Position numbers and translations under genes: made by a program
Part shown: one piece after another, positions 8,280-23,822 of the stretch
Numbering within the stretch: the first letter of the stretch is position 1
Layout: the number at the start of each line of letters is the position of its first letter
Origin: Tyzzerella sp.
GTDB lineage: Bacteria > Bacillota > Clostridia > Lachnospirales > Lachnospiraceae
Direction of reading: 5' to 3'
DNA length: 64,000 nt
Assembly: GCA_017410145.1 (NCBI GenBank)
Contig: JAFQRJ010000031.1
Span: 28,988 to 92,987, forward strand
The notes under the pieces: generated by a model
Databases searched by the model: none
What the model was told of the DNA's origin: nothing
What the model saw: the letters and a program-made list of their open reading frames with translations, nothing else

Positions 8280-8291
8280 GAAATTTATGTA

Positions 8292-8320
8292 TGCTCGGAC
8301 TTACTTGTCCGAGCATTTTT
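8292..8320 (+). terminator. Rho-independent terminator of pyrKD
   Basis: TGCTCGGAC (8292-8300) and GTCCGAGCA (8307-8315) form a 9-bp perfect stem with a 6-base loop, followed by TTTTT. It sits tail-to-tail with the reverse-strand gene ending at 8319, so it may also help end that transcript. Confidence 0.85.
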
Positions 8321-8531
8321 AAAACATTTTATCTCGACTTTCACCAAGACTATTTACGAAATTCTCCATGTCTGCACGGGTGTGCATCTGGCGGCTCTTT
8401 TCAACTGTTGCGTTTTTTTCGGCGTCACTCATATTTGCAAAAACTTCCATTGATTTTGCATTTGCCGCCAGAGACAACCCGAAACCAATAGGCATTTCGC
8501 CACCTTCACCGATATTCCATTTTTCATCCAT
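8319..8531 (-). CDS. Small conserved protein of unknown function
   Basis: About 70 residues: MPIGFGLSLAANAKSMEVF, then MSDAEKNATVEKSRQ, ending in NFVNSL. This resembles a short cytosolic protein common in clostridia (MPxGFG...LSxxEKxxV...NSL), and no function is known to me. A GTG at 8540 is in frame, but AGGAAG on the reverse strand is spaced for the ATG at 8531. It is single-gene and convergent with pyrD. Confidence 0.72.
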   Translation of the reverse strand: MDEKWNIGEGGEMPIGFGLSLAANAKSMEVFANMSDAEKNATVEKSRQMHTRADMENFVNSLGESRDKMF

Positions 8532-8685
8532 GTATGTCACCTTCCTGTTTGTAAAATATAATGTTAGTGTAATAAATTCGAGTGATTTTATGCGGAATTA
8601 CTCTGTGATTTTCCAAATAAAAAACCGAAGCACATGTTTATAAAAGATGCATACGATATATGGAACTCATTTTCTGAGGTGTTTT

Positions 8686-9120
8686 ATGTTTTTTAAGAAT
8701 CAAACAAAACCATATGCTGTTGCAAAAATTGCAGGTAATGCAAATTATCCGGACGTTAAGGGAAATGTTTCGTTTTACGATGTATATGGTGGTACTTTTG
8801 TGGTGGCAGACATTAGAAATCTGCCGGATAGTGATGGTTTCCATGGTTTTCATATTCATGATGGAAATAGTTGTATGCCAATGCAAGAGGGCGGGCATTA
8901 TAATCCGACGAATCAGCCACATCCGATGCATGCAGGAGATTTGCCTTCGATACTTGCAAGTGGTGGTATGGTGTTTAGCGCATTTTACACCAATCGCTTT
9001 TATCCGGAGGATATAGTAGGAAAAGTTGTTGTTATTCATGCCAACCCAGATGATTTTAAGTCGCAACCGTCAGGAAATCCGGGCCCAATTGTAGCGTGTG
9101 GAGAAATTAAAGGACAGTGA
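8686..9120 (+). CDS. Cu/Zn superoxide dismutase family protein, cytosolic
   Basis: 144 residues from the ATG at 8686, which has GAGGTG 5 bases before it (an in-frame ATG at 8647 lacks a good site). All metal ligands can be aligned: Cu His56, His58, His71 and His118; Zn His71, His79, His82 and Asp85. The disulphide pair would be Cys63 and Cys138. The conserved active-site arginine (Arg143 in the human enzyme) is replaced by Ile135 in GNPGPIVACG. There is no signal peptide, so the protein should stay in the cytoplasm, unlike most bacterial SodC. Dismutase activity is plausible but may be weakened. Confidence 0.85.
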   Translation: MFFKNQTKPYAVAKIAGNANYPDVKGNVSFYDVYGGTFVVADIRNLPDSDGFHGFHIHDGNSCMPMQEGGHYNPTNQPHPMHAGDLPSILASGGMVFSAFYTNRFYPEDIVGKVVVIHANPDDFKSQPSGNPGPIVACGEIKGQ

Positions 9121-9132
9121 TATGCTTCCATC

Positions 9133-9175
9133 ATAGCAACCAGTTGCATAGTAGTAAAAAGTGATTGGTTGCTAT
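9133..9175. repeat. Inverted repeat at the left edge of the defence island
   Basis: The 10-bp arms ATAGCAACCA (9133-9142) and TGGTTGCTAT (9166-9175) are perfect complements with a 23-base loop. No T-run follows, so it is a weak terminator candidate at best. It lies between sodC and the island promoter. Confidence 0.5.
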
Positions 9176-9192
9176 CAAATAGGTGAAAATAA

Positions 9193-9221
9193 TTGACTGT
9201 ACTAGTGAATTGTGTTATATT
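9193..9221 (+). promoter_or_regulatory. Sigma-A promoter for the defence island
   Basis: TTGACT (9193-9198), 17-bp spacer, TATATT (9216-9221), with TGTG just before the -10. It lies 55 bp upstream of the Fic start. No comparable promoter was noticed until the reverse gene at 20657, so it may drive the whole string through hsdR. Confidence 0.75.
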
Positions 9222-9275
9222 CAATTATATCAAAACTCGCAAAATGATTAAATTAAACACTGACAAGGGGGTAGT

Positions 9276-10274
9276 ATGAGAAAAATTTATTATGATGAAA
9301 AGTGGAAAAAACTACTTACACCTGAAATAGTTTCTTTGCTTACCACTATCCATGAGTTCAAAGGTGAACAGACCGTATTTGTTGAAAGATATGGAAATGA
9401 ATTAGAACAATTGGCTGAAGCAACACATATACAAAGCGTTGAGGCATTTAACAGTATTGAAGGAATTTATATATGTGATGAACGATTAAAGTTGATTGCA
9501 TTGGATAAGACAATGCCAAAGACACGAAAAGAATTTGAAATTGCAGGGTATAGAGATGTGTTAAATACAATTAATTATAATTATGAACACATACCAATAA
9601 AGTCTTCTATCATATTGAACTTACACAGAGATTTAAATAAATTTAATGTAGCTGGCATAGGTGGTAAATATAAAGAAAATGGTGACATGTTGGAAATGAT
9701 TAATGAACTATGTGATGATTATGATGAAATTACAAGAAATGAACTTGTTGATCCATTGCTGGTAATCCCTATGTTTATATTAGATTTTATGTGCATTCAT
9801 CCGTTCGGGGATGACAATGGGAGAATGAGTCGTTTGTTGACGTCACTGTTGTTATATCGAGCAGGCTATCTTGTTGGGAAGTATATCAGTGTAGAAAAAT
9901 TGATGGAAAATCTCAAAGACACCTATTATGAAGCAGTGCAAGCAAGTTCAAAACATTGGCATAAGGATGAAAATAATTATGAACCGTTTGTTAGATTCAT
10001 GTTGGGAATTATTTCTAATGCGTATTTGGAATTTTTTGCCAGAATACGCTTATCGATTATGAATGGTTTGTCGAAACCAGAACACGTGAGAGAAATTATT
10101 AAAGAAACGTTAGGCACAATTACAAAGACGGAAATTATGAAAAAATGTCCGAATATCAGTCAAATAACAATTCAACGAACATTGGCAGATTTGCTTGCCA
10201 AGGGTGAGATTGTAAAAATTGGCGGAGGAAGATATACAAAATACACATGGAATTGGTCGAGAGGGGACGAGTAA
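9276..10274 (+). CDS. Fic family protein with C-terminal winged helix
   Basis: 332 residues. The Fic core motif is HPFGDDNGRMSR from His175 (consensus HPFxxGNGRxxR, with Asp in place of the first Gly). Such enzymes transfer AMP or a related group to target hydroxyls. An SIEG segment (about 65-70) resembles the N-terminal inhibitory helix only loosely. The last 60 residues (EIMKKCPNISQITIQRTLADL) look like a winged helix-turn-helix. AAGGGGG precedes the ATG. The stop is directly followed by the hsdM ATG, tying it to the restriction system. Fic genes are frequent passengers in type I systems; whether it is regulator, toxin or defence effector is not known. Confidence 0.88.
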   Translation: MRKIYYDEKWKKLLTPEIVSLLTTIHEFKGEQTVFVERYGNELEQLAEATHIQSVEAFNSIEGIYICDERLKLIALDKTMPKTRKEFEIAGYRDVLNTINYNYEHIPIKSSIILNLHRDLNKFNVAGIGGKYKENGDMLEMINELCDDYDEITRNELVDPLLVIPMFILDFMCIHPFGDDNGRMSRLLTSLLLYRAGYLVGKYISVEKLMENLKDTYYEAVQASSKHWHKDENNYEPFVRFMLGIISNAYLEFFARIRLSIMNGLSKPEHVREIIKETLGTITKTEIMKKCPNISQITIQRTLADLLAKGEIVKIGGGRYTKYTWNWSRGDE

Positions 10275-11777
10275 ATGATTACAGGCGAATTGAAAAATAA
10301 AATAGATAGTATGTGGGATGTATTTGCAGCGGGAGGTTTGGTAAACCCATTAGATGTCATTGAACAAGTTACGTATTTGATGTTTATTCATGATTTAGAT
10401 GATGCCGATAATATCCGAGCAAAAGAAAGCGCAATGCTTGGACTCCCATACAAGAGTATCTTTGCTAATGAGGTGTCTATTGGGGATAGAACGATTGATG
10501 GAACACAGTTGAAATGGTCTGTATTTCATGATTTCCCAGCTGCTCGTATGTATACTGTAATGCAGGAGTGGGTGTTCCCATTTATTAAGAATCTACATGG
10601 AGATAGAAATAGTGCATATTCCAAATATATGGATGATGCTATCTTTAAGCTTCCCACACCGTTATTATTATCTAAAGTTGTGGATGCGTTAGATGAGATT
10701 TATGCGATTATGGCAGAGGTAAAGGATGTGGATATTAGAGGCGATGTCTATGAATATCTGTTATCAAAGATTTCGCAGTCTGGAAGAAACGGTCAATTTA
10801 GAACACCACGTCATATTATTCGCATGATGGTTGAACTTATGCAACCAAAACCGGATGATGTTATTTGTGACCCTGCTTGTGGTACATCTGGATTTCTTGT
10901 GACAGCAGGAGAATATTTGAAAGAGAAACATAAAGAAGAAATCTTCTTCAACAAACAGAAAAAAACCCACTATATGAATCATATGTTTTACGGTTTTGAT
11001 ATGGACAGAACCATGCTAAGAATTGGTGCAATGAACATGATGACACATGGCGTAGAAAGCCCGTTTATCGAATATCGTGATAGTTTATCTGACCAAAATC
11101 AAGACAAGGACAAGTATTCTTTAATACTTGCCAATCCACCATTTAAAGGTAGTTTAGATGTAGATACAGTATCGGCAGATTTGTTAAAAATGTGCAAAAC
11201 CAAAAAGACTGAGTTGTTATTCTTGGTTGCGTTTGTACGCATGTTGAAAGTGGGCGGAAGATGTGCGTGTATTGTCCCAGATGGCGTCTTATTTGGCTCG
11301 TCTGCAGCTCATAAAGCGATTCGTAAAGAATTGGTTGAAGGAAATCGCTTGGAAGCAGTGATTTCAATGCCTTCAGGCGTATTTAAACCATATGCGGGAG
11401 TATCGACGGGAATCTTGATTTTTACAAAAACAGGGCATGGTGGTACGGATAATGTCTGGTTCTATGATATGACTGCAGATGGACTTAGTTTGGATGATAA
11501 GAGAACACCAGTGGCAGAGAATGACATTGATGATATCATTGAGCGATTCCATAACTTAGACAAGGAGACGGAAAGAAAGAGAACGGACAAGTCTTTTTTT
11601 GTACCAAAGGAAGAAATCGTTGGAAATGAGTATGATTTATCAATTAACAAATATAAACAGGTGGAATATGTAGCGGTTGAATATCCACCAACAAGCGAGA
11701 TTTTGGCTAATATTAAGAAAATTGAATGTCAAATTAATAAAGAATTGGATGAATTGGGAAAATTATTAAACCTATAG
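10275..11777 (+). CDS. hsdM: Type I restriction-modification system, DNA methyltransferase subunit HsdM
   Basis: 500 residues. An N-terminal helical HsdM domain (MWDVFAAGGLVNP) precedes an N6-adenine methyltransferase domain with the SAM-binding DPACGTSGFL (about 197-206) and the catalytic NPPF (about 286). It methylates host DNA and with HsdS and HsdR forms the restriction complex. It begins at the base after the Fic stop, with GAGGGGA inside the fic end as its ribosome binding site. The specificity and nuclease genes are not adjacent but 1.7 and 5 kb further on. Confidence 0.95.
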   Translation: MITGELKNKIDSMWDVFAAGGLVNPLDVIEQVTYLMFIHDLDDADNIRAKESAMLGLPYKSIFANEVSIGDRTIDGTQLKWSVFHDFPAARMYTVMQEWVFPFIKNLHGDRNSAYSKYMDDAIFKLPTPLLLSKVVDALDEIYAIMAEVKDVDIRGDVYEYLLSKISQSGRNGQFRTPRHIIRMMVELMQPKPDDVICDPACGTSGFLVTAGEYLKEKHKEEIFFNKQKKTHYMNHMFYGFDMDRTMLRIGAMNMMTHGVESPFIEYRDSLSDQNQDKDKYSLILANPPFKGSLDVDTVSADLLKMCKTKKTELLFLVAFVRMLKVGGRCACIVPDGVLFGSSAAHKAIRKELVEGNRLEAVISMPSGVFKPYAGVSTGILIFTKTGHGGTDNVWFYDMTADGLSLDDKRTPVAENDIDDIIERFHNLDKETERKRTDKSFFVPKEEIVGNEYDLSINKYKQVEYVAVEYPPTSEILANIKKIECQINKELDELGKLLNL

Positions 11778-11786
11778 GAGAAAAAG

Positions 11787-12683
11787 ATGCTTAGAGTAAG
11801 TAGAAGAGGCGGCTTTTCAGATAGAAATGGGATTAGTCCGGAAAACACAGAAATTCAACTTCGAGATTTTGATAAACGAACTAGAGTGCAGTTTGCAAAT
11901 CTAATAGTTCAATTATATGGTACTATATATGGAGATGCGCACTATACGCATGATGACAAACAAGAACTATTTAAATATGTGTATGGGGAAGTTTATACAC
12001 AGACAATTGATGTTTCGCGTTATTATTCTGAGCAAACCTTTTTTAAGAATATAAACGAAACGCTTATGAATGATAATTATGACGCCGTCTTGACTTTAAT
12101 AGAAACATTTGCGCAATATTGGTACCAATATCTGGGAAAATATTCCACGTACTCAGAATATAGAAAGCAAAGAAATGAGTTGCACGATAGATTTAACCAT
12201 ATTTTTAAAAAGGAATATGTTGGGTACAGATTAATTAATGGAAAAATTTCTCCTATCAGTGATGAGATGGAAGTTACTTCCATTAAAAATGCATTGTGTA
12301 GCAAGTATGAGTCTGTGAGGGAACATATTGCTAAGGCAAACACACTTCTTGCTGATAGGGACAATCCAGATTATGAAAATTCGATTAAAGAAAGTATAAG
12401 TGCTGTGGAAGCGATTTGTGAGATATTTACTGAATTAAAAGGGAAGGAAGCCACACTTGGTAATATGTTAAAGAAATTGGAAAACAAAGGAGTGGTTATT
12501 CATGGCGGATTGAAGACTGCATTTAACGTTTTGTATGGATACACAAGTGATGCGAATGGGATTAGACATGCTGGTGATATAGGTGGGCCAGCATCAACAT
12601 TTGAGGAAGCAAAATTTATGCTAGTTTCTTGTAGTGCGTTTGTTAATTACTTAATTGGAGTATGGAGTGCTACCACTAAATAA
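11787..12683 (+). CDS. AbiJ-NTD4-like protein, putative abortive-infection component
   Basis: 298 residues. The N-terminus (FSDRNGISPENTEIQLRDFD, then RTRVQFANLIVQLY) matches the pattern I associate with the AbiJ N-terminal domain 4 family. The C-terminal half (SISAVEAICEIF ... NGIRHAGDIGGPASTFEEAKFMLVSCSAFVNYLIG) has the helical form of HEPN-type Abi C-terminal domains, with an IRHAG signature. Such proteins are often RNases in phage-defence loci. It lies 9 bp after hsdM with AGGAG. The family call is from pattern memory only. Confidence 0.68.
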   Translation: MLRVSRRGGFSDRNGISPENTEIQLRDFDKRTRVQFANLIVQLYGTIYGDAHYTHDDKQELFKYVYGEVYTQTIDVSRYYSEQTFFKNINETLMNDNYDAVLTLIETFAQYWYQYLGKYSTYSEYRKQRNELHDRFNHIFKKEYVGYRLINGKISPISDEMEVTSIKNALCSKYESVREHIAKANTLLADRDNPDYENSIKESISAVEAICEIFTELKGKEATLGNMLKKLENKGVVIHGGLKTAFNVLYGYTSDANGIRHAGDIGGPASTFEEAKFMLVSCSAFVNYLIGVWSATTK

Positions 12684-12729
12684 TGAAAAGAATAATGAGG
12701 GCTTTTGAGGATAGCAAGAGGAGAGAATA

Positions 12730-13419
12730 ATGGCATTTTCTAAAGAAATTCAAGAAGAAATTTATAATTACTGTAACAATCATTTGGCTGATGAAGAATG
12801 GTATGAGACAGAATTCTTCTTTATTAAAGATGAAGATTTAAGAAAACGACTTGTTGAAGAATTCAAAGCCATAAGATTTGCGTACAAATTGTATGAAGGA
12901 ATTGAAGCTAAAGGAGAAAATTTAATATTTGAAGTAAGAAATCAAATTTTGGCATATGCGACTATTTATGAAGCGGTAATTGAAGAAGTACTAAAGACCT
13001 ATTATTCTGATACGAAGGAGTACCATGACTTGATGTATTCATGTGTTCCAATTCCAATTTCAATTCCAACGAAACAAAGAGAAGAATTAGGAGAATTACT
13101 GGAACATGATGGAAAAGATATTTATACGTTTTACTATGGCGAAAAGAAGAAAGACGAACCCAAAGTGCGATTTGATGATAAATGTTTGACGGCAGAAAAG
13201 TTAGGTGTCATTCATAAGTTTTTGAATAAAAAGTCTGAGGAGATAGATCTTCCGCGTGAAATAATAGAGATTTATAATTATCGGAATGGAATTCACTTAA
13301 TTGCAGAACGAAGGAAGAAAATAACTTACGAATTAGATTTGAGTAAAAAAGCATACCGTCGAATGAGACCTTTTATAGATCAAATAAAAGACAGACTACA
13401 AGCAGACGGGAAAATATAA
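12730..13419 (+). CDS. Unknown all-helical protein in the defence island
   Basis: 229 residues, rich in charged residues, with no signal peptide or membrane helix. The C-terminal part (IYNYRNGIHLIAERRKKITYELD) contains R-N-x-x-H, near but not identical to the HEPN R-x4-6-H motif. A short helical repeat (EVRNQILAYATIYEAVIEEVL) lies in the middle. I do not recognise a family. AGGAG sits 8 bp before the ATG. Position between the AbiJ-like gene and hsdS suggests a role in defence or in guarding hsdS, but nothing in the sequence proves it. Confidence 0.65.
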   Translation: MAFSKEIQEEIYNYCNNHLADEEWYETEFFFIKDEDLRKRLVEEFKAIRFAYKLYEGIEAKGENLIFEVRNQILAYATIYEAVIEEVLKTYYSDTKEYHDLMYSCVPIPISIPTKQREELGELLEHDGKDIYTFYYGEKKKDEPKVRFDDKCLTAEKLGVIHKFLNKKSEEIDLPREIIEIYNYRNGIHLIAERRKKITYELDLSKKAYRRMRPFIDQIKDRLQADGKI

Positions 13420-13443
13420 ATTTAGATTTGTGGAGATGATGAG

Positions 13444-14619
13444 ATGACAAAATTAAGTTCCATATGTACATTATTTACAGATGGAGATTGGATTGAAAGC
13501 AAAGATCAATCAGATTCGGGTATTCGTTTAATACAAACAGGTAATATAGGAGAGGGCTGTTTTTTAGAAAAAGCAGGTAAAGAAAAATATGTATCTGAAG
13601 AAACTTTCGATAGATTGAAATGTGAGGAAGTTTTTCCAGGTGATATTTTAATTTCTAGACTTCCTGAACCAGTAGGAAGAGCTTGCATTGTTCCAGAGAA
13701 AACTGAAAGAATGATAACAGCGGTTGATTGTAGCATTTGCAGAGTTAATGAAAAGCTAATTGATAAAGAATACCTATGTTATTTTCTGCAGTCTAGAAGT
13801 TATTATCAGCAGCTTAATAACAATGTAGCAGGGACTACTCGAAAAAGGATAAGCAGAAAAAATCTTGGTGATGTAGAAATTGATATTCCTTCTTTTGAAA
13901 TCCAAAAACATGTGGTTGAAGCGTTGAACAAGATTACTACAATTATTCAAGGGCGTAAACAGGAATTGCAAGAATTTGATAATCTCATCAAATCCCGATT
14001 TGTGGAGATGTTTGGCGACTTGGTTTTGGGTGATAAGTTTTCAGATGTAAAACAAAAAATCGGTGATATTGCATATGTAACAAAATTAGCAGGATTTGAA
14101 TTCACAAAGTTTATTCAATACAAAGAGCGAGGCGATATTATAATGCTTCGTGGTTTAAATTGTAAAAAGGGGCATTTGGTATTGGATGATATTAAATGGA
14201 TAGACAGAGAAACATCTGACTTGCTACCACGATCAAAATTATATTATGGAGATATTTTGATGACATATGCAGGAACAATTGGCGATGTGGCAATGGTGGA
14301 TGAAGATGATAAGTATCATCTTGCACCTAATGTTGCAAAGATAACCCTGCAAGATAAAAAGATGTGCAATCCAGTATTTTTGATACATTTGTTTATGTAT
14401 TCGCATGATTATATAATGACCTTTGCATCGCAGGTGGCTCAAGCATCAATCAATATGGAAAAGATAAGAAGTTTTGAATACTATTTTCCGCCAGTTGTTC
14501 TTCAAAACGAGTTTGAACAATTTGTAACACAAGTCGACAAATTGAAATTTGAAGTACAGAAGTCATTAGATGAAACACAAACATTAATGGATTCGCTTAT
14601 GCAACAATACTTTGGATAA
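13444..14619 (+). CDS. hsdS: Type I restriction-modification system, specificity subunit HsdS
   Basis: 391 residues, with two target-recognition domains (about 1-150 and 205-360) each followed by a helical spacer. The first spacer includes IPSFEIQKHVVEALNKITTII and the second FPPVVLQNEFEQFVTQVDKL. The conserved join KSRFVEMFGDL lies between the halves. It sets the DNA sequence recognised by the HsdM/HsdR complex. GGAG is 8 bp before the ATG. No second hsdS fragment or recombinase is nearby, so switching by inversion is not indicated. Confidence 0.92.
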   Translation: MTKLSSICTLFTDGDWIESKDQSDSGIRLIQTGNIGEGCFLEKAGKEKYVSEETFDRLKCEEVFPGDILISRLPEPVGRACIVPEKTERMITAVDCSICRVNEKLIDKEYLCYFLQSRSYYQQLNNNVAGTTRKRISRKNLGDVEIDIPSFEIQKHVVEALNKITTIIQGRKQELQEFDNLIKSRFVEMFGDLVLGDKFSDVKQKIGDIAYVTKLAGFEFTKFIQYKERGDIIMLRGLNCKKGHLVLDDIKWIDRETSDLLPRSKLYYGDILMTYAGTIGDVAMVDEDDKYHLAPNVAKITLQDKKMCNPVFLIHLFMYSHDYIMTFASQVAQASINMEKIRSFEYYFPPVVLQNEFEQFVTQVDKLKFEVQKSLDETQTLMDSLMQQYFG

Positions 14620-14645
14620 GATTTTCATTTAAAATGGGGGATTAT

Positions 14646-15665
14646 ATGAAAAATGAAATTACAAAACAAATGGAGATCGTGTTATATCGTACAGAAGACG
14701 ATTCTGTAACGGTTAGTGCATTGATAAAAGATGAATCTATCTGGATTACACAAAAAGCTATGGCAGAGTTATTCGGCGTAGATAAATCAGGAATCAGTAG
14801 ACATTTAACACACATCTTTGAGTCGGGAGAATTAGAAGAATCCTTGGTTGTTGCAAAAATTGCAACACCCAATCCACATGGTAAAACAGAGGGGACGACA
14901 CAGTATATACCGACAAATTATTACAATCTTGATGCCATTATTTCTGTTGGCTATCGAGTAAACTCAATACAAGCAACACAATTTCGTATTTGGGCAACAA
15001 ACATTTTGAAAGAATATATGATTAAAGGGTTTGTTATGGATGATGAACGTTTAAAACTCGCCAAAACAACTTTTGGAAAAGATTATTTTCGTGAGTTGCT
15101 AGAAAGAGTTCGCTCTATCCGTGCAAGTGAGCGTAGAATATGGCAACAAATCACTGACATATTTGCAGAATGTAGCATTGATTATAGCAAGGATTCAGAA
15201 ATTACTCACCGATTTTACGCAACAGTGCAAAATAAATTTCATTTTGCAATTACAGGCAAAACAGCCGCTGAAATTGTGTACGACTTGGCAGACCATACAA
15301 AAGAACATATGGGTTTAACTACATGGAAAAATGCCCCAGATGGTCGTATTTTAAAATCAGATACAACAATTGCAAAGAACTATCTAAGTGAAAAGGAAAT
15401 TAAACAGCTAGAAAGAACAGTGACGGGATACTTTGATTACATTGAAGATTTGATTGAACGAGAAAATGCATTTACAATGCAGGAATTTTCAGAAAGTATA
15501 AACGCCTTTTTAGAGTTTAGGAAATATGAAATTTTAAAAGACAATGGGCGTGTTTCGCATAAGCGGGCACAAGAGAGGGCATATGCGGAATATGAAGTCT
15601 ATAACAAAACCCAGCCTATTGAGTCGGATTTTGATAGGGTAGTAAAAAGAATAACTCAATCATAA
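14646..15665 (+). CDS. RhuM-family protein (virulence RhuM)
   Basis: 339 residues. An N-terminal region (SIWITQKAMAELFGVDKSGISRHLTHI, here split: WITQKAMAELFGV) looks like a DNA-binding helix-turn-helix. A long RhuM domain follows (NLDAIISVGYRVNSIQATQF, RIWATNILKEYMIKGFVMDD). The family is widespread in restriction islands and is also known as rhuM in the Salmonella SPI-3 island; its biochemical role is unresolved. An ATG at 14634 is in frame, but GGGGG at 14636-14640 fits the ATG at 14646. It lies between hsdS and the AbiH gene. Confidence 0.85.
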   Translation: MKNEITKQMEIVLYRTEDDSVTVSALIKDESIWITQKAMAELFGVDKSGISRHLTHIFESGELEESLVVAKIATPNPHGKTEGTTQYIPTNYYNLDAIISVGYRVNSIQATQFRIWATNILKEYMIKGFVMDDERLKLAKTTFGKDYFRELLERVRSIRASERRIWQQITDIFAECSIDYSKDSEITHRFYATVQNKFHFAITGKTAAEIVYDLADHTKEHMGLTTWKNAPDGRILKSDTTIAKNYLSEKEIKQLERTVTGYFDYIEDLIERENAFTMQEFSESINAFLEFRKYEILKDNGRVSHKRAQERAYAEYEVYNKTQPIESDFDRVVKRITQS

Positions 15666-15708
15666 GAAGAAGTTCATTCATAAAGTACAACGAACGAAAG
15701 GATAAGAA

Positions 15709-16788
15709 ATGAATATAACGTTTTTAATTGGAAATGGATTTGATGTTGGAATAGGAATGAAATCAAGATTTAAGGATTTTTTTCCTATATATCAAGAAAA
15801 TTCCTGTAAGAAGGAAGAAAGAATTAGAAAGTTTTCTGATGTGATTGGTAGTGATTATGACACATGGGCGGATTTTGAATGCGCACTTGGTCAATATACT
15901 TTGAAGTTTAATAATGAGACAAAACAAGACTTTATTGCTCAAGTTAAGGACTTCGAAAATGACTTTATTGAGTATTTAAAACATAACGAAATGACACTGG
16001 TGTTTGATGACGAAGTTGGAGATTTGATGGTAAATGCATTAGTACAATTTTATGATTCGAAAAATTTAGCACCAGAATCCAGTGCGGCGATAAGAAAAGT
16101 TTATTCTACTCATGGTGCGGAAAACCACACATATAATTTTATAAACTTTAACTATACGTTTACATTAGAGAAATGCTTGAAGACAATCTCGGATGATGTT
16201 GTTCGTACAAGAAGAAGTGGGAATGTGGAAAAAGTAGACAAAATAGGGCAAGTTGTTCATGTACACGGGAATTGCGAATTATATCCAATAATAGGAGTGA
16301 ATGATAAGAGTCAAATTGCGAACAAGGAACTCGCAGAAGATGGAATGTTTTGTCGTTATATTGTCAAGCCGCTTTTAAATCAGTTTTTAAGACAAGGAAA
16401 TGATGCAAACACGACAAATATCATTAACCAAAGTACAATTATATGTGTATATGGTATGGCGTTGGGCGAGACAGATAAAAAATGGTGGAACTTATTAATA
16501 AAATGGTTGAATGGCAATAGCGAGAGACAACTAGTGGTGTATGAGTATGATAATAAATATACTACATCTACACAATTTGGATGGCTAGAGAAAGAGGATT
16601 TGATTATCAATAAGTTGGCACAATATAGTGGTGTTGGAAATGATATAGAAAAATTACGATCAAGAATACATATTGCTATTCACAAGAACATTTTTTCTAT
16701 GAGACTCTCGATGAGAAGTGATGAGGAAATGGATCAACTTTACAACGAAATAATAATGGACCAAATGATGAATGATGTATTGGGATAA
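15709..16788 (+). CDS. AbiH-family bacteriophage abortive-infection protein
   Basis: 359 residues. The N-terminus FLIGNGFDVGIGMKSRFKDFF is the typical opening of the AbiH family (GNGFD). Further family-like segments are FINFNYTFTLE, VVHVHGN and CVYGMALGETDKKWW. Lactococcal AbiH aborts phage infection by an unknown mechanism. It is cytosolic, preceded by AAAGGA, and 33 bp from hsdR. Placement inside a type I operon argues for joint expression with restriction. Confidence 0.85.
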   Translation: MNITFLIGNGFDVGIGMKSRFKDFFPIYQENSCKKEERIRKFSDVIGSDYDTWADFECALGQYTLKFNNETKQDFIAQVKDFENDFIEYLKHNEMTLVFDDEVGDLMVNALVQFYDSKNLAPESSAAIRKVYSTHGAENHTYNFINFNYTFTLEKCLKTISDDVVRTRRSGNVEKVDKIGQVVHVHGNCELYPIIGVNDKSQIANKELAEDGMFCRYIVKPLLNQFLRQGNDANTTNIINQSTIICVYGMALGETDKKWWNLLIKWLNGNSERQLVVYEYDNKYTTSTQFGWLEKEDLIINKLAQYSGVGNDIEKLRSRIHIAIHKNIFSMRLSMRSDEEMDQLYNEIIMDQMMNDVLG

Positions 16789-16821
16789 TGTCGAGTAAAT
16801 TATAATTAGGAGCGTTGTATC

Positions 16822-19800
16822 ATGACAAACTTTGATTATTTAAAGAACGAACCGAAATTTAATAGTTTTTCAGATGTGGCAATTGTAGCGGAGAAAATTC
16901 TAAGTATTGATATTGAGTCATGTGTCATTAACTGTCGTCGTGCAATGGAATTTGCGATTAAGTGGATGTATTCTGTGGACAAGTCATTAGAAATGCCATA
17001 TCAAGATACGTTAATCAGTTTGATGAGTACAGAAGATTTTCACAATTTGGTAGATGACAATCTGTGGAAACGAATAGACTTGATTCGCAAGATTGGAAAC
17101 AGAGCAGCACATAATGGCAAAAAGATAACTATGGATGAAGCATCTTTATGTTTACAGAATCTTTTTGTCTTTTTGGATTATGTTGCTTATTGTTATGCTG
17201 ATACATACGAGGAACGTAAATTTGATGAGAGTTTATTGAAAGAACAGAAAGAGTTTACTGTCTATCACAAGATATCTGATGAAGATGTCGATTTAAAAGC
17301 ACTTGTGGCTGAAAACAAAGCTTTAAAAGAAGAATTAACTGCAAGGCGTGAAGAACAGCAACAAACATATGTGTCGAAACCATTGGATTTGTCCGAGTAT
17401 AAAACAAGGAAGATTTATATTGATGCAATGCTTGCAGATGCAGGTTGGATTGAGGGAAAAGACTGGATTAATGAAGTGGAAATTACAGGAATGCCAAATA
17501 AGTCTGAAGTGGGCTATGCAGACTATGTATTGTATGATGATATGCATAAACCGTTGGCGGTTGTTGAAGCGAAGCGAACTTGTGTGGATGTTTCTAAGGG
17601 GAGACAACAGGCAAAATTGTATGCGGACTTATTAGAAAAGAAACATCATCGTAGACCGGTAGTATTTTTAACCAATGGTTTCGAAACTAGAATTGTTGAT
17701 AATCAGTATCCAGAAAGAAAATGTGCGGTTATCTATTCAAAGCGAGATTTGGAACAGTTGTTTAATCTCCAAACAATGCGTACAAGTCTCAAACATCCTT
17801 CTGTAGATAGAAATATTGCAGGACGTTATTATCAAGAAAGCGCAGTGAAAGCAGTATGCGATAGTTTTGATAAGAAAAACAGACGTAAGGTACTCATTGT
17901 TATGGCAACGGGAGCAGGCAAAACGAGAACTGTTATAGCGTTATGTAAGGTGCTTTTGGATGCAGGATGGGTGAAAAATATTTTGTTTCTTGCAGATAGA
18001 AATTCCCTTGTTACACAGGCAAAAAGAAGTTTTGTAAATCTTTTGCCGGATTTGTCATGTTCTAACTTGGTAGAGGAAAAAGATAATTACAATGCACATT
18101 GTATTTTTTCCACCTATCAAACAATGATGCATTGTATTGATTCTGTCAAAGACGAAAATCGGAAAAAACTATTTACATGTGGTCATTTTGATTTAGTAAT
18201 TTGCGATGAGGCGCATCGTTCCATTTACAATAAGTATAGGGATATTTTCAATTACTTTGATGCAATGTTAGTGGGGTTAACTGCAACTCCCAAAGATGAG
18301 ATTGATAAGAATACATATAGTATTTTTGAACTGGAAAATGGTGTGCCGACATATGGATATGAGCTGGCACAAGCAGTAGAAGATGGATATCTTGTGGATT
18401 ATATGTCAGTGGAGACTAGATTGAAATTTATAGAGCAAGGAATTGTGTACGATGAATTATCCGAAGAAGATAAAGAGGAGTATGAGGATACATTTGGTAC
18501 AGAAGATGGAGAGCTTCCGGAACGAATTAATTCTTCTGCGTTAAACACATGGATATTTAATGAGGATACTATAAAGCAAGTTCTCCATACGTTAATGACA
18601 GATGGGTTGAAGATTCATTATGGGGAGATGCTTGGTAAAACAGTCATCTTTGCAAAGAACCATAAACACGCAGAAAAGATTTTGGAAGTCTTTAATAAGG
18701 AGTATCCGCATTTGAACAAAAGCGGTCAACCGTTTGCAAAAGTCATTGACAATTATATGACCTACGCCCAGAGTGCAATTGATGAATTTTCTGATGCAAA
18801 GAAATTGCCACAGATTGCCATATCAGTTGATATGCTAGATACAGGTATTGATGTGCCGGAAGTTTTGAACTTAGTGTTCTTTAAAAAAGTGATGAGTAAG
18901 GCGAAGTTCTGGCAAATGATTGGTCGTGGTACTCGTCTTTGCCCTGGATTATTGGACGGGGATAATAAGGATAAATTTTATATATTTGACTTCTGCGGTA
19001 ATTTTGAATTTTTTAGAATGAACCAAGGGAAACCTACTGCTAACATGGTGGCATTGCAAGGGGCTATTTTCAATTTGGAATTTCAAATGGCATACAAGCT
19101 ACAAGATTTACAATATCAAGTGGAACGATTAATAGCTTATAGAACCAAATTAGTCGAGGAGATGACAGGGAAAGTAAAGGAACTGAATAGGGATAATTTT
19201 GCCGTTCGTCAGCATTTGAAATATGTAGATACATACTCAGTAGTAGAGAACTATCAAGCATTAACTTATGAAGACACGTTGACTGTACGAGAGGAATTGG
19301 CACCACTAATCTTGCCTAATGGAGATGAGGCTAGTGCAGTACGGTTTGATGCCCTTATGTATGGAATAGAATTGGCATATCTTGCTGGAAAGAAATATGG
19401 AAAAGCTAGAGGTGATTTGTATAAAAGGGTGAGTGGTATTGCAAGTGTTGCAAATATACCGGAAATACAGGTGCAAGCAGAGTTGATTAATAAGATTTTG
19501 CATACGGATTATCTGGATAAAGCAGGTATAGATGAATTTGAACATGTTCGAGAGAACTTAAGAAACTTGATGAAATATATACCTGCCATTACGCATAGAT
19601 ATGATACGAATTTTAATGATGAGATCCTATCTGTGGATTGGCGTGAATCAGAATTGGAAAACGATGAATTGAAAAATTACAAGGCTAAAGCAGAATACTA
19701 TGTGCGACAGCATCAGGACAATTTTGTTATTGCCAAGTTAAAAACCAATAAACCATTAACAGTAAGTGACATTTCGGTATTGGAAGACATTTTATGGAAC

Positions 19801-20130
19801 CAAGTGGGAAGTAAGTCGGATTATGAGGCAGAATATGGCGACAAGCCACTTGGTGAATTTGTGCGAGAAATTGTGGGACTTGATATGAATGCCGCAAAGG
19901 AGGCTTTTGCAGATTTCTTGAATAATACTAATATGGACAGTAGACAGATATATTTTGTCAATCAGATAATAGAGTATATTGTTCATAATGGTATGCTAAA
20001 AGATATGTCTGTACTTTTAGAATCTCCGTTTACAGATAAGGGAAGTGTTGCAGAAGTCTTTGCTGATATGACAGTTTGGAGGGGGATTCGAAAAGTTATT
20101 GAGAATATAAATAGTAATGCAGTAGCATAG
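16822..20130 (+). CDS. hsdR: Type I restriction-modification system, restriction/translocase subunit HsdR
   Basis: 1102 residues. Domains in order: an N-terminal DUF4145-like helical region (1-115); a PD-(D/E)XK nuclease with YADYVLYDD and VVEAKRT (about 230-260); a superfamily 2 motor with Walker A ATGAGKT (about 360-366), CDEAHRS (about 460), LTATPK and DTGIDVPE with the arginine finger in QMIGRGTR; and a C-terminal helical domain. It translocates and cuts DNA lacking the HsdM mark. TAGGAG precedes the ATG. It is the last gene of the island string, followed by a terminator. Confidence 0.95.
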   Translation: MTNFDYLKNEPKFNSFSDVAIVAEKILSIDIESCVINCRRAMEFAIKWMYSVDKSLEMPYQDTLISLMSTEDFHNLVDDNLWKRIDLIRKIGNRAAHNGKKITMDEASLCLQNLFVFLDYVAYCYADTYEERKFDESLLKEQKEFTVYHKISDEDVDLKALVAENKALKEELTARREEQQQTYVSKPLDLSEYKTRKIYIDAMLADAGWIEGKDWINEVEITGMPNKSEVGYADYVLYDDMHKPLAVVEAKRTCVDVSKGRQQAKLYADLLEKKHHRRPVVFLTNGFETRIVDNQYPERKCAVIYSKRDLEQLFNLQTMRTSLKHPSVDRNIAGRYYQESAVKAVCDSFDKKNRRKVLIVMATGAGKTRTVIALCKVLLDAGWVKNILFLADRNSLVTQAKRSFVNLLPDLSCSNLVEEKDNYNAHCIFSTYQTMMHCIDSVKDENRKKLFTCGHFDLVICDEAHRSIYNKYRDIFNYFDAMLVGLTATPKDEIDKNTYSIFELENGVPTYGYELAQAVEDGYLVDYMSVETRLKFIEQGIVYDELSEEDKEEYEDTFGTEDGELPERINSSALNTWIFNEDTIKQVLHTLMTDGLKIHYGEMLGKTVIFAKNHKHAEKILEVFNKEYPHLNKSGQPFAKVIDNYMTYAQSAIDEFSDAKKLPQIAISVDMLDTGIDVPEVLNLVFFKKVMSKAKFWQMIGRGTRLCPGLLDGDNKDKFYIFDFCGNFEFFRMNQGKPTANMVALQGAIFNLEFQMAYKLQDLQYQVERLIAYRTKLVEEMTGKVKELNRDNFAVRQHLKYVDTYSVVENYQALTYEDTLTVREELAPLILPNGDEASAVRFDALMYGIELAYLAGKKYGKARGDLYKRVSGIASVANIPEIQVQAELINKILHTDYLDKAGIDEFEHVRENLRNLMKYIPAITHRYDTNFNDEILSVDWRESELENDELKNYKAKAEYYVRQHQDNFVIAKLKTNKPLTVSDISVLEDILWNQVGSKSDYEAEYGDKPLGEFVREIVGLDMNAAKEAFADFLNNTNMDSRQIYFVNQIIEYIVHNGMLKDMSVLLESPFTDKGSVAEVFADMTVWRGIRKVIENINSNAVA

Positions 20131-20135
20131 TAACC

Positions 20136-20165
20136 AAAGGCGTGAGACAAAAACCTCACGCCTTT
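20136..20165. terminator. Bidirectional terminator after hsdR
   Basis: AAAGGCGTGAG (20136-20146) pairs with CTCACGCCTTTT (ending 20165) over a short A-rich loop. T- and A-runs on both sides make it usable by hsdR and by the convergent gene ending at 20196. Confidence 0.85.
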
Positions 20166-20195
20166 TCCATTTTTATATTTCTCAATATTTACATA

Positions 20196-20657
20196 TCAAA
20201 ATATATTGTGAACCCAAAGATAGACTAGTGAAATTACTACAAGAATTACACTTACAACAAGAAAAACATTTGACCAGAAGGAAGATTCATTTTTATTTCT
20301 CACATCCGAGCATTTATAGGAAATGTTTTTTCTGGAATATTTACGTAAGAGTGCAAGAGGGTCTGTTTGTTTCAGAATTCGATTACGGAAATCTTTCACC
20401 CAATTCACATCCACACTTGTGCAAAGTTTTTCATTAAAAGAACCTTCTGTGTGTGCTAAATGATTTCTAATATGCCGAAGACGTATTAAGTTGTTTAAAT
20501 CAGACCTCCAATTCGAAACTTGGCGGGCATCATTCCAATCCATATTTTTCATAGCATTGATATAGCTTGTGACACCAGGTTGCCCGTCATAAAGTTCGCT
20601 ACACAATTTATCAAGATGTTTATATTCTTCTAGAAAAATAAAATTCAAATTGTTCAT
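20196..20657 (-). CDS. HEPN-like protein with C-terminal membrane anchor
   Basis: 153 residues. A helical domain contains RNHLAH (about 67-72), an R-x4-H motif like the catalytic motif of HEPN ribonucleases. The last 25 residues (FWSNVFLVVSVILVVISLVY) form one membrane helix with a short end, so the domain should face the cytoplasm as a tail-anchored protein. A TTG at 20669 is in frame, but GGAGAG fits the ATG at 20657. It is convergent with hsdR and at the island edge. I cannot place it in a named family with confidence. Confidence 0.7.
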   Translation of the reverse strand: MNNLNFIFLEEYKHLDKLCSELYDGQPGVTSYINAMKNMDWNDARQVSNWRSDLNNLIRLRHIRNHLAHTEGSFNEKLCTSVDVNWVKDFRNRILKQTDPLALLRKYSRKNISYKCSDVRNKNESSFWSNVFLVVSVILVVISLVYLWVHNIF

Positions 20658-20753
20658 TTCTCTCTCCAAACAAATTCTTTTATATTTTAAATCATAGTTA
20701 GTGTATCATAAGATTTAGAAGCTTACAAATGAAAAAGTTTTATATAAAAACTA

Positions 20754-20782
20754 TTGACAAAAACGTCAGCATGTGTAAATAT
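20754..20782 (+). promoter_or_regulatory. Putative promoter for the 169-residue protein
   Basis: TTGACA (20754-20759) is a perfect -35. The -10 lies in the AT-rich stretch TAAATATATA (20775-20784), preceded by TGTG. The exact hexamer is uncertain because the best matches give spacers of 15 or 18-19 bp. Confidence 0.5.
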
Positions 20783-20835
20783 ATAAGCAGAGAATATTTA
20801 GCACGTGCGCAAGTACGGTTAAGGAGGAAATAAAA

Positions 20836-21345
20836 ATGGATACTATTCAAGAACTACAGAATTTTAGAACACAACTTATTCAAGAAATTAATGTTACATT
20901 TGACCATATGATTCAAATTCTTAGAACGGAAAATGTTCCTACAGGACAAGTGGCGGAAGTAAGAGAATATGAAAGCTTATACCCACTTACAGCAGCGACA
21001 GGAATTTTTAAAGGTAAGAAGCCAACTGGAGTGAGATTTCCAGATGGCACGCGTGAAGATGTACGGACATGGAAAAATGTTGTAAAGGTGATTTTAACTA
21101 GATGTAATAAAGTTATGTTAAATCACAAACGATTAGAGGATTTGTGTGGAAAAGTGTCTGGCAGAGCAAGAGTCTTCTTGGCTGAAAAGCCAGATGGAAT
21201 GCGGAGTTCTTTACAAATTGATGATAAAATATTTGTGGAGACACACTATGATACGGAAACACTTTTGAGAATATTAACAACACGTATTTTGGAACCAATA
21301 AATTATGATTATAGTGGAATTACTATTACCATAAGAAATGATTAA
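20836..21345 (+). CDS. Unknown protein at the right edge of the defence island
   Basis: 169 residues, cytosolic, with an N-terminal helix (about 1-45) and then a compact domain containing GKKPTGVRFPDGTREDVRTW and, further on, KNVVKVILTRC, CGKVSGRARVFLAEKPDGMR, IFVETHYDTETLL. The FPDGT-x-TWKxV and ETHYDT segments look conserved in style, but I do not recognise the family. It has its own promoter and AAGGAGG site and lies between two terminators, so it is monocistronic. Confidence 0.7.
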   Translation: MDTIQELQNFRTQLIQEINVTFDHMIQILRTENVPTGQVAEVREYESLYPLTAATGIFKGKKPTGVRFPDGTREDVRTWKNVVKVILTRCNKVMLNHKRLEDLCGKVSGRARVFLAEKPDGMRSSLQIDDKIFVETHYDTETLLRILTTRILEPINYDYSGITITIRND

Positions 21346-21380
21346 GTATGAATACAACGAGTAGGCAAGCGATAATAATA

Positions 21381-21404
21381 GAAGCACACTCAGTGGTGTG
21401 CTTC
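21381..21404. terminator. Hairpin between convergent genes
   Basis: GAAGCACAC / GTGTGCTTC, 9 to 10 bp stem with a short loop, lies between the 169-residue gene and the reverse-strand SDR gene. T content is modest on both sides. Confidence 0.6.
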
Positions 21405-21418
21405 TCGTCATTCATATT

Positions 21419-22177
21419 CTATTTCCCCTGCTGTTTGCACCAGATTCCCATTACCCATTTTACCGGTAACAGCTTCACCAGCAGCACCTGCATTCTAACA
21501 GGGAAGCCCATAATGGAAACAGATTTTCTCTTGCGTAAATCCCTCATGGCCTTATTCACTACCTGTTGGGAGGTGTAGAAACGGTCGTAATATTTGATGG
21601 TGTCATCTTGAACCGCACGGTTAAAGAATTCTGTTTTAATCCAGTGCGGTGCAATAGCCATTACGTGAATCTTACGTTTTTTCAGCTCCATTTCCAAAGC
21701 CCTTGAGAAATTCATCACATAAGCTTTGGATGAGCCGTACACATTAATATATGGCACCGGCTGCCAAGAAGAGTTGGAGGCCAGATTCAGTAGGTGGCTG
21801 CCAACCGGCATATATGGAAGACTGATGTGGGTAATAGCAGTTAAACCTTTTATGTTTAAATCAATGAGATTCAATTGCTTATCCAGATCCATCTGTGAAA
21901 AATCACCGAAAAGACCGAAACCAGCAGCATTTATCAGAACTTGAATGGATGGTTTTAATTCTTCTAACAAATTGCGATAAACTTCATAACTTTCCAAAAC
22001 AGCCAAATCCAATGCGATTGGGCGAATCTTGGCACGACAATCCTTTTGTAATTCTAATAGACGTTCTTCTCGTCTGGCAATCACCCAGATTTCATCTAAA
22101 GTAAATTCCTTATCAATGGCATAGACGAAATCTCGTCCCATGCCACTGGAAGCACCGGTAATTACAGCAATATTCAT
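21419..22177 (-). CDS. Short-chain dehydrogenase/reductase
   Basis: 252 residues. The Rossmann nucleotide-binding motif TGASSGMG is at about 7-14 and NAAGFG at about 87-92. The active site has Ser in NLASNSSW and Y-x3-K in YGSSKAYV. A later hydrophobic C-terminus (MGFPVRMQVLLVKLLPVKW) could associate with membrane or substrate. The substrate cannot be inferred. GGAGG precedes the ATG. It lies 15 bp after putP on the same strand and is probably co-transcribed. Confidence 0.88.
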   Translation of the reverse strand: MNIAVITGASSGMGRDFVYAIDKEFTLDEIWVIARREERLLELQKDCRAKIRPIALDLAVLESYEVYRNLLEELKPSIQVLINAAGFGLFGDFSQMDLDKQLNLIDLNIKGLTAITHISLPYMPVGSHLLNLASNSSWQPVPYINVYGSSKAYVMNFSRALEMELKKRKIHVMAIAPHWIKTEFFNRAVQDDTIKYYDRFYTSQQVVNKAMRDLRKRKSVSIMGFPVRMQVLLVKLLPVKWVMGIWCKQQGK

Positions 22178-22192
22178 AGTATTCCTCCGATT

Positions 22193-23716: not shown

Positions 23717-23764
23717 TTTAGTCTCTCCTTTTGTGAAATATAATTTAATAATGTAATTCGCTAA

Positions 23765-23793
23765 AGTATACCATAAAATAGAGTAAAGTGCAA
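23765..23793 (-). promoter_or_regulatory. Promoter of putP
   Basis: On the reverse strand TTGCAC (23793-23788), 17-bp spacer and TATACT (23770-23765), with TGG before the -10. Its -35 directly abuts the pyrE -35. Confidence 0.7.
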
Positions 23794-23822
23794 TTGAAAT
23801 GAACATATTTTTATGATACTAT
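23794..23822 (+). promoter_or_regulatory. Promoter of pyrE
   Basis: TTGAAA (23794-23799), 17-bp spacer, TACTAT (23817-23822) with TGA just before it. The first bases of its -35 touch the putP -35 with no gap. Confidence 0.65.

What the first reader, a model, noticed from the sequence alone, without database searches (positions are those of the whole stretch)
9193..20165. Composite defence operon: type I R-M split by Fic, AbiJ-like, unknown, RhuM and AbiH genes
One strong promoter is followed by eight same-strand genes with gaps of 0-46 bp and one terminator. hsdM, hsdS and hsdR are separated by accessory genes, three of them with abortive-infection or toxin-like features. The arrangement suggests a layered system in which restriction and cell suicide are co-expressed, perhaps with the Abi proteins triggered when restriction fails. 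The 229-residue member is unassigned.
Basis: partly seen in the sequence, partly recalled or inferred. Interest (0 to 1): 0.72.

Follow-up and report, generated by a model that had tools for sequence, protein, structure and literature searches.

The report
Mobile restriction operon carrying swappable genes
This is a DNA-cutting antivirus operon, probably of a gut bacterium, in which other likely antiviral genes are slotted between the core genes and differ from species to species, and whose first gene, a Fic protein, probably acts as the operon's own switch through a DNA site just in front of it.

Summary
In detail: eight same-strand genes (gaps 0-46 bp), Fic-hsdM-AbiJ_NTD4-U229-hsdS-RhuM-AbiH-hsdR, ending in a terminator-like hairpin. 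The cargo is not a conserved layered unit: among 60 complete operons with related hsdM (window included), 54 carry extra genes between M, S and R (129 ORFs, 76 clusters), two carry none, and no other has the window's set. Conserved is the backbone Fic-hsdM-hsdS-hsdR (Fic before hsdM in 72 of 87 loci). New here: a 32/33-bp palindrome (AAYTnnnTCA-N12/13-TGAnnnARTT) at the Fic promoter in 53 of 67 loci with Fic and none of 15 without. It also precedes three Fic genes not followed by hsdM (60-73% identity), though not 15 more distant ones (48-59%), and occurs once in the window's incomplete assembly, at 9223-9254. Best reading: a mobile type I R-M backbone with two cargo slots, autoregulated by a Fic-winged-helix protein, as shown for CccR elsewhere. 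Such embedded operons are known (C. jejuni rlo/mlo, TgvAB, RptR-DarTG2); a Fic controller of one was not found in my literature searches.

The parts
9193..9221 (+). promoter-like site TTGACT-17-TATATT with TG before the second hexamer
   Evidence: 10 of 12; such sites are not enriched over shuffles
9223..9254 (.). predicted Fic operator, inverted repeat AATTATATCA-12 nt-TGATTAAATT, just downstream of the -10 hexamer
   Evidence: only full match in 64 kb; only match in the 1.89-Mb, 68% complete assembly; same motif at Fic promoters of relatives
9276..10274 (+). Fic protein with probable C-terminal winged helix, 332 aa; signature motif reads HPFGDDNGRMSR; 22 alignment columns common to relatives are missing after residue 139
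10275..11777 (+). hsdM, type I methyltransferase, NPPF at residue 287
11787..12683 (+). cargo 1 (M-S slot): AbiJ_NTD4-domain protein, PADLOC PDC-S32, 298 aa
   Evidence: 55% relative in L108
12730..13419 (+). cargo 2 (M-S slot): U229, unassigned family with an invariant RNxxH near the C-terminus
13444..14619 (+). hsdS, specificity subunit, two Methylase_S stretches
14634..15665 (+). cargo 3 (S-R slot): RhuM family, PADLOC PDC-S05
   Evidence: 83% relative next to hsdR in L063
15709..16788 (+). cargo 4 (S-R slot): AbiH family, GNGFD at residue 8
   Evidence: absent between RhuM and hsdR in L063
16822..20130 (+). hsdR, type I restriction subunit, N-terminal DUF4145, GAGKT 364, DEAH 462
20136..20165 (+). 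terminator-like hairpin, 11 pairs, T-rich tail
8280..23820 (.). segment holding the operon and its neighbours, lying between two genes (pyrD and pyrE, named by eye) that are 56 bp apart in a same-genus genome (G580)

Best explanation
A horizontally mobile type I R-M operon with a conserved backbone Fic-hsdM-hsdS-hsdR and two insertion slots (M-S and S-R) that collect exchangeable, probably independently acting defence genes; here AbiJ_NTD4, U229, RhuM and AbiH. Shown by sequence: the backbone, the slots, the turnover of cargo, and a conserved palindrome that goes with this Fic family. Inferred: mobility; that Fic binds the palindrome as a dimer through its winged helix and represses its own promoter and so the whole operon; that the nucleotide or AMPylation state of Fic may set its DNA affinity. 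In the window the catalytic motif is degenerate while winged helix and operator remain, so Fic here is probably a regulator without AMPylation activity.
For: Families and gaps. Backbone: Fic within two ORFs upstream of hsdM in 72 of 87 nonredundant loci, the gap being -4 to 12 nt in 53 of 72; HsdM 74-91% and HsdR 65-86% identical to the window's in the 59 other complete operons. Slots: of 60 complete operons 54 hold cargo of at least 100 aa other than recombinase; M-S 31, first S to R 50, both 27; 76 clusters. Pfam of 40 cargo representatives includes TIR, SieB, Abi_alpha, YhcG nuclease and Schlafen AlbA_2 domains. Operator: at least one half-site in 60 of 67 loci with Fic (mean 2.60; 0.08 in mononucleotide shuffles), full pattern in 53 of 67, but 0 of 15 without Fic and 4 of 691 other genes; 63 of 64 sites are 32 or 33 bp long; 43 of 53 loci have a -35-like pattern within 12 nt against 8.8% of random 14-mers. 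Three Fic genes not followed by hsdM carry it (L157, L158, L170). In 13 genomes 19 sites against 3 for the reversed pattern, 14 of the 19 at Fic genes. Half-site base 7 agrees with Fic residue 297 in 57 of 63 loci (z 14.7 against at most 7.0 for 206 HsdM residues). Precedent: CccR, a Fic-HTH protein, represses its own promoter through inverted AGATAATCAT repeats (PMC9755527, passages including the abstract).
Against: No binding or transcript data. The half-site pattern was drawn from the loci in which it was first counted; of the Fic promoters, only those of G134, G137, G028, G047, G004, G189, G044 and G203:C22 and the distant Fic genes lie outside that set, and of the four hsdM-linked ones among them only two (G134, G047) have the full site. 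Fifteen of 18 readable Fic genes without an hsd hit lack any half-site; these are 48-59% identical to the query, one point below L170 (60%), so relatedness alone does not separate them cleanly. 7 of 67 operon loci with Fic have no half-site. Five of 19 genomic sites are not at a Fic gene found (G580 was not searched for Fic). The covariation is partly phylogenetic: on a tree of Fic residues 1-255 only two branches change both characters, and half-site positions 3 and 6 do not exceed the HsdM control; a sister-pair test did not single out the helix. In the window the wHTH Pfam match is below cut-off (21.4 against 27 bits) and only one operator is present. Loci without Fic may have lost promoter and operator together for other reasons.
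Confidence: 0.68

Rival explanations
1. Layered guardian system: the cargo proteins (AbiJ-like, RhuM, AbiH, U229) are held silent by the R-M complex and released when a phage blocks restriction, like PrrC with EcoPrrI.
For: Same strand and short gaps; Doc/Fic and RhuM genes in R-M loci were proposed as multilevel defence (PMC3710099 passages); PrrC precedent (PMC12707154 passages).
Against: Cargo is swapped or absent while HsdM (74-91%) and HsdR (65-86%) stay similar, which is hard to square with dedicated contacts; no PrrC-like domain among the Pfam matches of the window proteins. TgvAB inside a type I R-M operon protects without HsdR restriction activity (PMC11411939 passages).
Confidence: 0.13
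2. Casual cluster: an R-M operon at a recombination hotspot, with accessory genes caught by chance, no shared regulation, and Fic being just another toxin or defence gene (SoFic-like).
For: Strong cargo turnover; promoter-like sites no commoner than chance; PADLOC SoFic match 2.5e-23; Sofic is a defence toxin (PMC12249575 abstract).
Against: Fic position is conserved (72 of 87) and goes with a fixed-length palindrome; NCBIfam SoFic equivalog far below cut-off (40.2 against 550 bits); in the window all cargo lies on the operon strand with short gaps.
Confidence: 0.12
3. Fic is a toxin kept in check within the operon, an addiction module that stabilises the mobile R-M operon; the operator is ordinary toxin-antitoxin style autoregulation.
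For: The Fic signature HxFx(D/E)GNGRxxR fits 65 of 68 copies and the inhibitory helix is kept in 66 of 68; the window and L121 deviate in both, as if loss of toxicity relaxed the need for inhibition.
Against: Compatible with regulation rather than opposed to it; the window Fic deviates in the catalytic motif yet operon and operator persist; 15 of 87 operons do without Fic; the motif correlation rests on two loci, and L122 deviates in the signature alone.
Confidence: 0.07

Closest known systems
Campylobacter jejuni hsd loci with rlo (R-linked) and mlo (M-linked) ORFs, Miller 2005 as described in PMC5183652
   Different: Other lineage; no Fic-operator controller is mentioned in the passages read; orthology of cargo not tested
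RptR-DarTG2 type I R-M island of enteropathogenic E. coli (PMC12255303)
   Same: Promoter-proximal first gene represses its own promoter; defence genes sit between hsdS and hsdR
   Different: RptR is a 9-kDa single-domain protein binding TAGCTA; here a Fic-wHTH protein and a 32/33-bp palindrome; no TAGCTA at 9061-9275
CccR, Fic-HTH autorepressor (PMC9755527)
   Same: Fic domain plus C-terminal HTH, inverted-repeat operator near -35 and -10 with half-site ending AATCAT
   Different: CccR is a secreted type VI effector with a 46-nt site (N26 spacer); the word 'restriction' does not occur in the paper's main text
SoFic defence protein (PADLOC SoFic; PMC12249575)
   Same: Fic domain plus a C-terminal domain that is needed for activity and differs in position between apo and ATP-bound forms
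   Different: NCBIfam equivalog cut-off not reached; the window Fic lacks the catalytic consensus
TgvAB inside the VPI-2 type I R-M operon (PMC11411939) and the PDC-S candidates of PADLOC (Payne 2024 preprint seen only as a citation; that the PDC-S models stem from it is recalled)
   Same: Defence genes embedded in a type I R-M operon; the window's AbiJ-like and RhuM proteins match PDC-S32 and PDC-S05
   Different: Cargo identities, lineage and the Fic-operator module

Membership tests
Type I restriction-modification system | HsdM with N6-methyltransferase domain and NPPF | tested here: met
Type I restriction-modification system | HsdS with two target-recognition domains | tested here: met
   Methylase_S in two stretches
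Type I restriction-modification system | HsdR with HSDR_N nuclease, SF2 helicase (GAGKT, DEAH) and C-terminal domain | tested here: met
Type I restriction-modification system | restriction and methylation activity | not testable with these tools
   needs methylome or plasmid transfer
R-M operon with embedded cargo (rlo/mlo kind) | variable ORFs between M and S and between S and R | tested here: met
Fic-wHTH autorepressor (CccR kind) | palindromic operator at the Fic promoter | tested here: met
Fic-wHTH autorepressor (CccR kind) | C-terminal winged-helix domain | tested here: inconclusive
   DIP2311-like_C 21.4 bits against cut-off 27; solved chain 8uqu aligns through window residue 323
Fic-wHTH autorepressor (CccR kind) | binds and represses its promoter | not testable with these tools
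   needs EMSA and reporter
AMPylating Fic enzyme (SoFic kind) | HxFx(D/E)GNGRxxR | tested here: not met
   window HPFGDDNGRMSR; 65 of 68 copies (window counted) fit
SoFic equivalog (NF046030) | score above curated cut-off | tested here: not met
   40.2 against 550 bits
RptR-controlled R-M island | TAGCTA repeats in the promoter | tested here: not met
   none in 9061-9275
PrrC-type guardian of a type I R-M system | ABC-ATPase/HEPN anticodon nuclease encoded in the operon | tested here: not met
   no such family among the Pfam matches of the eight proteins
HEPN ribonuclease (for U229) | Rx4-6H motif | tested here: not met
   RNxxH (Rx3H) in 8 of 8 aligned sequences; no Rx4-6H in the window protein
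HEPN ribonuclease (C-terminus of the AbiJ_NTD4 protein) | Rx4-6H motif in the C-terminal domain | tested here: not met
   only match at residue 126, not conserved in L108; C-terminal GIRHA instead
AbiH | PF14253 above cut-off | tested here: met
   111.2 against 30.9 bits; no PADLOC match
RhuM | PF13310 above cut-off | tested here: met
   344.7 against 33.7 bits

The most novel reading that the evidence does not exclude
A Fic-winged-helix protein is a portable, infection-responsive controller: it represses the promoter of a type I R-M cassette bay through a 32/33-bp operator whose half-sites co-evolve with its recognition helix, and a change of nucleotide or AMPylation state during infection releases it, switching on restriction and whatever cargo the bay holds.
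Probability: 0.3. Interest if true: 0.75.

Novelty: new variant of a known kind. Interest (0 to 1): 0.52.

Why it matters
It turns a one-off gene list into a rule: an R-M backbone found in many gut anaerobes holds two cargo slots, so its M-S and S-R gaps are places to look for new defence genes (76 cargo clusters; 18 of 40 scanned representatives had no Pfam match). It also gives a concrete, quickly testable DNA target for a Fic protein in a phage-defence operon, bearing on the question of how such islands are regulated before and during infection, which the RptR paper leaves open (PMC12255303 discussion).

Tried and rejected
Layered unit as a conserved module: rejected by neighbourhoods. U229 as HEPN ribonuclease: attractive (invariant RNxxH and a Q-x3-Y-x2-I-x-E helix) but the spacing fails Rx4-6H and no Pfam family supports it. 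U229 in other places: 11 plasmid records, no phage record, no viral contig with the single sequence and two with a four-member alignment, 2 of 299 family genomes and 2 of 398 phylum genomes, the own one counted each time, 4 of 392 order genomes of which L143 and L145 looked unrelated on reading and L144 was not read. A sister-pair test of operator covariation was uninformative; the mutual-information result stands for half-site base 7 and only marginally for base 5. An inverted repeat at 9133-9142 / 9166-9175 was not pursued. The pyrD-pyrE comparison does not give the operon's own boundaries, since the segment holds other genes too.

Many are metagenome bins, so record titles may mislead. Dropped from counts: L036 and L116 (duplicates), L118 (hsdM not recognised), 28 loci without a complete M..S..R including L119. 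Shuffles kept single-base composition only. In one search I examined the 30 loci that one search returned, not all its matches.
Full report
What is there. The window carries eight same-strand ORFs from 9276 to 20130: Fic (332 aa), HsdM (500), an AbiJ_NTD4-domain protein (298), an unassigned 229-aa protein (U229), HsdS (391), RhuM (343), AbiH (359) and HsdR (1102). Gaps are 0, 9, 46, 24, 14, 43 and 33 bp. Family assignments come from Pfam, PADLOC and NCBIfam. HsdM has NPPF; HsdR has GAGKT and DEAH. A promoter-like site lies at 9193-9221 and a terminator-like hairpin at 20136-20165, although neither class of site is commoner than in shuffles.

Where it sits. In a same-genus genome (G580) two genes that I read by eye as pyrD and pyrE are 56 bp apart (L190). 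In the window 15,541 bp lie between their relatives (8280-23820), including the operon and some other genes. A second same-genus genome (G123) has a different 6.2-kb content there (L191). Neither genome has a relative of the gene at the right end, 22193-23806 (which has no positive control). The host is probably a Lachnospiraceae member: the same-family genome G203 has a contig of the same length and hsdM position as Acetitomaculum ruminis DSM 5522 (L035 and L093), a genus of Lachnospiraceae.

Are the accessory genes conserved? No. A search of 299 family genomes found hsdM relatives (E at most 1e-60) in 32, the own one counted, and a scan of genome contigs gave the best 80 of at least 504 loci, at 74-91% identity. 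By their titles these are mostly Lachnospiraceae, Oscillospiraceae and other Clostridia, with a few named Anaerovibrio, Phascolarctobacterium, Sharpea, Fibrobacteraceae or Spirochaetia; many are metagenome bins. After removing duplicates, 60 loci including the window hold a recognisable M..S..R on one strand. In 54 of 60 at least one ORF of 100 aa or more other than a recombinase lies between M and R: 31 in the M-S gap, 50 between the first S and R, 27 in both. The 129 such ORFs fall into 76 clusters, 51 of them singletons. Two loci, L092 (M, S and R overlapping by 4 nt) and L135, have no other ORF of that size; four more have only a recombinase. In the complete operons RhuM recurs in L063 (83%), L129, L131 and L136 (45-50%), the AbiJ-like gene in L108 (55%), AbiH in L033 (28%) and U229 in none; two incomplete loci, L097 and L121, also have a RhuM relative. 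Against L063, DNA matches cover most of Fic and hsdM, the end of hsdS, RhuM and hsdR (69-78%) and are absent from the AbiJ-U229 block and from AbiH, as expected for gene-by-gene insertion. Forty cargo representatives (of 76 listed; one of them the recombinase) were scanned with Pfam: 22 of 40 had a match at E at most 0.001, two of these only below the curated cut-off. Matches include CAP12/Pycsar TIR, TIR_2, SieB, Abi_alpha, YhcG nuclease, Schlafen AlbA_2, DUF559, NucS_C, Bro-N and KAP, but also families without an obvious defence role such as Peptidase_S26 and HAD.

Two hsdS genes. 21 of 60 operons have two hsdS genes and all 21 also carry a recombinase of one cluster (23 of 60 have it), whose representative is a tyrosine recombinase (PF00589). 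The window has neither. This resembles phase-variable type I loci in other bacteria (recalled, and abstracts seen in the listing).

What is conserved is Fic. Fic lies within two ORFs upstream of hsdM in 72 of 87 nonredundant loci where an upstream gene could be seen; in 53 of 72 the gap is -4 to 12 nt. Its signature HxFx(D/E)GNGRxxR fits 65 of 68 full-length copies; the window (HPFGDDNGRMSR), L121 and L122 deviate. The window and L121 are also the only two with an altered inhibitory helix (motif names from PMC3667792 and recall). The window Fic lacks 22 alignment columns present in over 80% of the copies. Fic proteins that deviate from the consensus are considered to have other activities (PMC3667792, passages).

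The operator. Upstream of Fic a palindrome recurs, half-site AA(T/C)T..(A/G)TCA. Within -200 to +30 of the Fic start, 60 of 67 loci have at least one half-site (mean 2.60; 0.08 in single-base shuffles) and 53 of 67 the full inverted pair; of 15 loci without Fic, one has a half-site upstream of hsdM and none the full pair; of 691 other genes in the same loci, four have the full pair. Although the pattern allowed spacers of 4-16, 63 of 64 sites are 32 or 33 bp long, and in 43 of 53 loci a -35-like pattern lies within 12 nt of a site (8.8% of random 14-mers). In the window the site is 9223-9254, starting two bases after the end of the -10 hexamer (9221), the only full match in 64 kb.

Does the operator belong to Fic or to hsd? 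Of 30 Fic loci returned by a family search, 11 are followed by hsdM: 8 of these have the full palindrome, L159, L165 and L168 do not. Nineteen show no hsd hit. L177 ends at the contig edge and cannot be judged (it has the palindrome). Of the other 18, three carry it: L157 (73%), L158 (72%) and L170 (60%), each followed by an unrelated gene; 15, at 48-59%, have not even a half-site. So the palindrome can go with this Fic without hsd, but more distant Fic genes lack it or use another sequence. A scan of 13 genomes with the fixed-length pattern gave 19 sites against 3 for the reversed control; by position 14 of 19 lie at a Fic gene. Seven of these 14 (G134, G004, G189, G203:C22) are at promoters that were not in the set from which I drew the motif. 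The window's 68% complete assembly has exactly one site, at this operon; G123, without a Fic match, has none. Five sites lie elsewhere; G580, with one of them, was not searched for Fic. Of the two others that I read, one lies 144 nt downstream of an S-adenosylmethionine synthetase-like ORF and one upstream of a small HTH-like ORF (named by eye).

Recognition helix. In 63 loci, half-site base 7 and Fic residue 297 agree in 57 (T with G, other residues with another base). Its z-score was 16.3 and 14.7, the highest of 205 variable Fic positions; the best of 206 HsdM positions reached 7.0. Base 5 with residue 300 is only marginally above the HsdM control (9.7 against 8.4), and bases 3 and 6 are not above it. 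On a tree of Fic residues 1-255 the two characters change 6 and 10 times but only twice on the same branch, so part of the signal is shared ancestry. The sister-pair test did not single out the helix.

How it most likely works. Shown by sequence: backbone, cargo slots and a Fic-linked palindrome. Inferred: Fic dimers bind it via the C-terminal winged helix and repress the operon. This follows CccR, where a Fic-HTH protein represses its own promoter by binding inverted AGATAATCAT repeats (PMC9755527, passages including the abstract); that half-site shares the ATCA core with many of ours. Inferred further: nucleotide binding may change DNA affinity, since the C-terminal domain of Sofic moves on ATP binding (PMC12249575, abstract and section 2.4) and DNA binding changes the activity of another Fic-wHTH enzyme, which however may bind DNA without sequence preference (PMC10628234, passages including the abstract). 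The cargo most likely acts independently, as TgvAB does inside a V. cholerae type I operon (PMC11411939, passages).

U229. It has plasmid relatives at 26-44% identity in Vibrio, Sinorhizobium, Priestia, Arthrobacter, Lactiplantibacillus and Planktothrix (11 records; the Planktothrix one lies in a protein annotated with pentapeptide repeats), a relative in G756, one in G005 near an integrase-like ORF and two in viral contigs, one beside an integrase-like ORF (integrases named by eye). In the plasmid regions read with annotation no R-M gene is listed, but those tables are incomplete and many products hypothetical; the Sinorhizobium region has no annotation. Invariant residues in the eight-member alignment include an RNxxH motif. 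It is a rare, apparently mobile, stand-alone family of unknown activity; a HEPN nuclease is suggested but fails the motif spacing.

Comparison and novelty. Embedded cargo in type I loci is known: rlo/mlo genes of C. jejuni (PMC5183652, passages), TgvAB, DarTG2 with the repressor RptR (PMC12255303, abstract, discussion and passages), PrrC (PMC12707154, passages), and a published proposal of layered R-M, HEPN, Doc and RhuM defence (PMC3710099, passages). The listings showed no paper on a Fic-wHTH regulator of a type I R-M operon; subscription journals and preprints are mostly not covered. I therefore call it a new variant of a known kind.

Noticed in passing
window 8280-23820 versus L190 and L191: The junction between two genes that read as pyrD and pyrE is an insertion site: 56 bp in G580, 6.2 kb of other genes in G123, 15.5 kb in the window.
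   Followed up: partly
L063, L071, L105, L117 and others, between the two hsdS genes: All 21 of 60 operons with two hsdS genes carry a recombinase of one cluster (PF00589 in its representative), suggesting switchable DNA specificity in this R-M family.
   Followed up: partly
L151 4920-6662: A U229-like stretch is the N-terminal part of a protein annotated with pentapeptide repeats in a Planktothrix plasmid.
   Followed up: no
G086:C7:124713-124745 (L207) and G203:C18:42869-42900 (L192): Operator-like sites with perfectly inverted half-sites away from the Fic genes found, one upstream of a small HTH-like ORF, one downstream of an S-adenosylmethionine synthetase-like ORF (names by eye).
   Followed up: partly
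window 16888-17160: HsdR carries an N-terminal DUF4145 (a HEPN-superfamily domain according to PMC3710099) in which the motif region reads GNRAAH, without Rx4-6H.
   Followed up: no
window 9133-9142 and 9166-9175: Exact 10-bp inverted repeat ATAGCAACCA / TGGTTGCTAT upstream of the promoter-like site.
   Followed up: no
window 8647-9120: 157-aa ORF that looks by eye like a Cu/Zn superoxide dismutase (recalled motif, not scanned).
   Followed up: no
window 20196-20669, minus strand: DUF6548 protein with a weak HEPN_Swt1 match (E 0.29), just beyond the operon terminator on the other strand.
   Followed up: no
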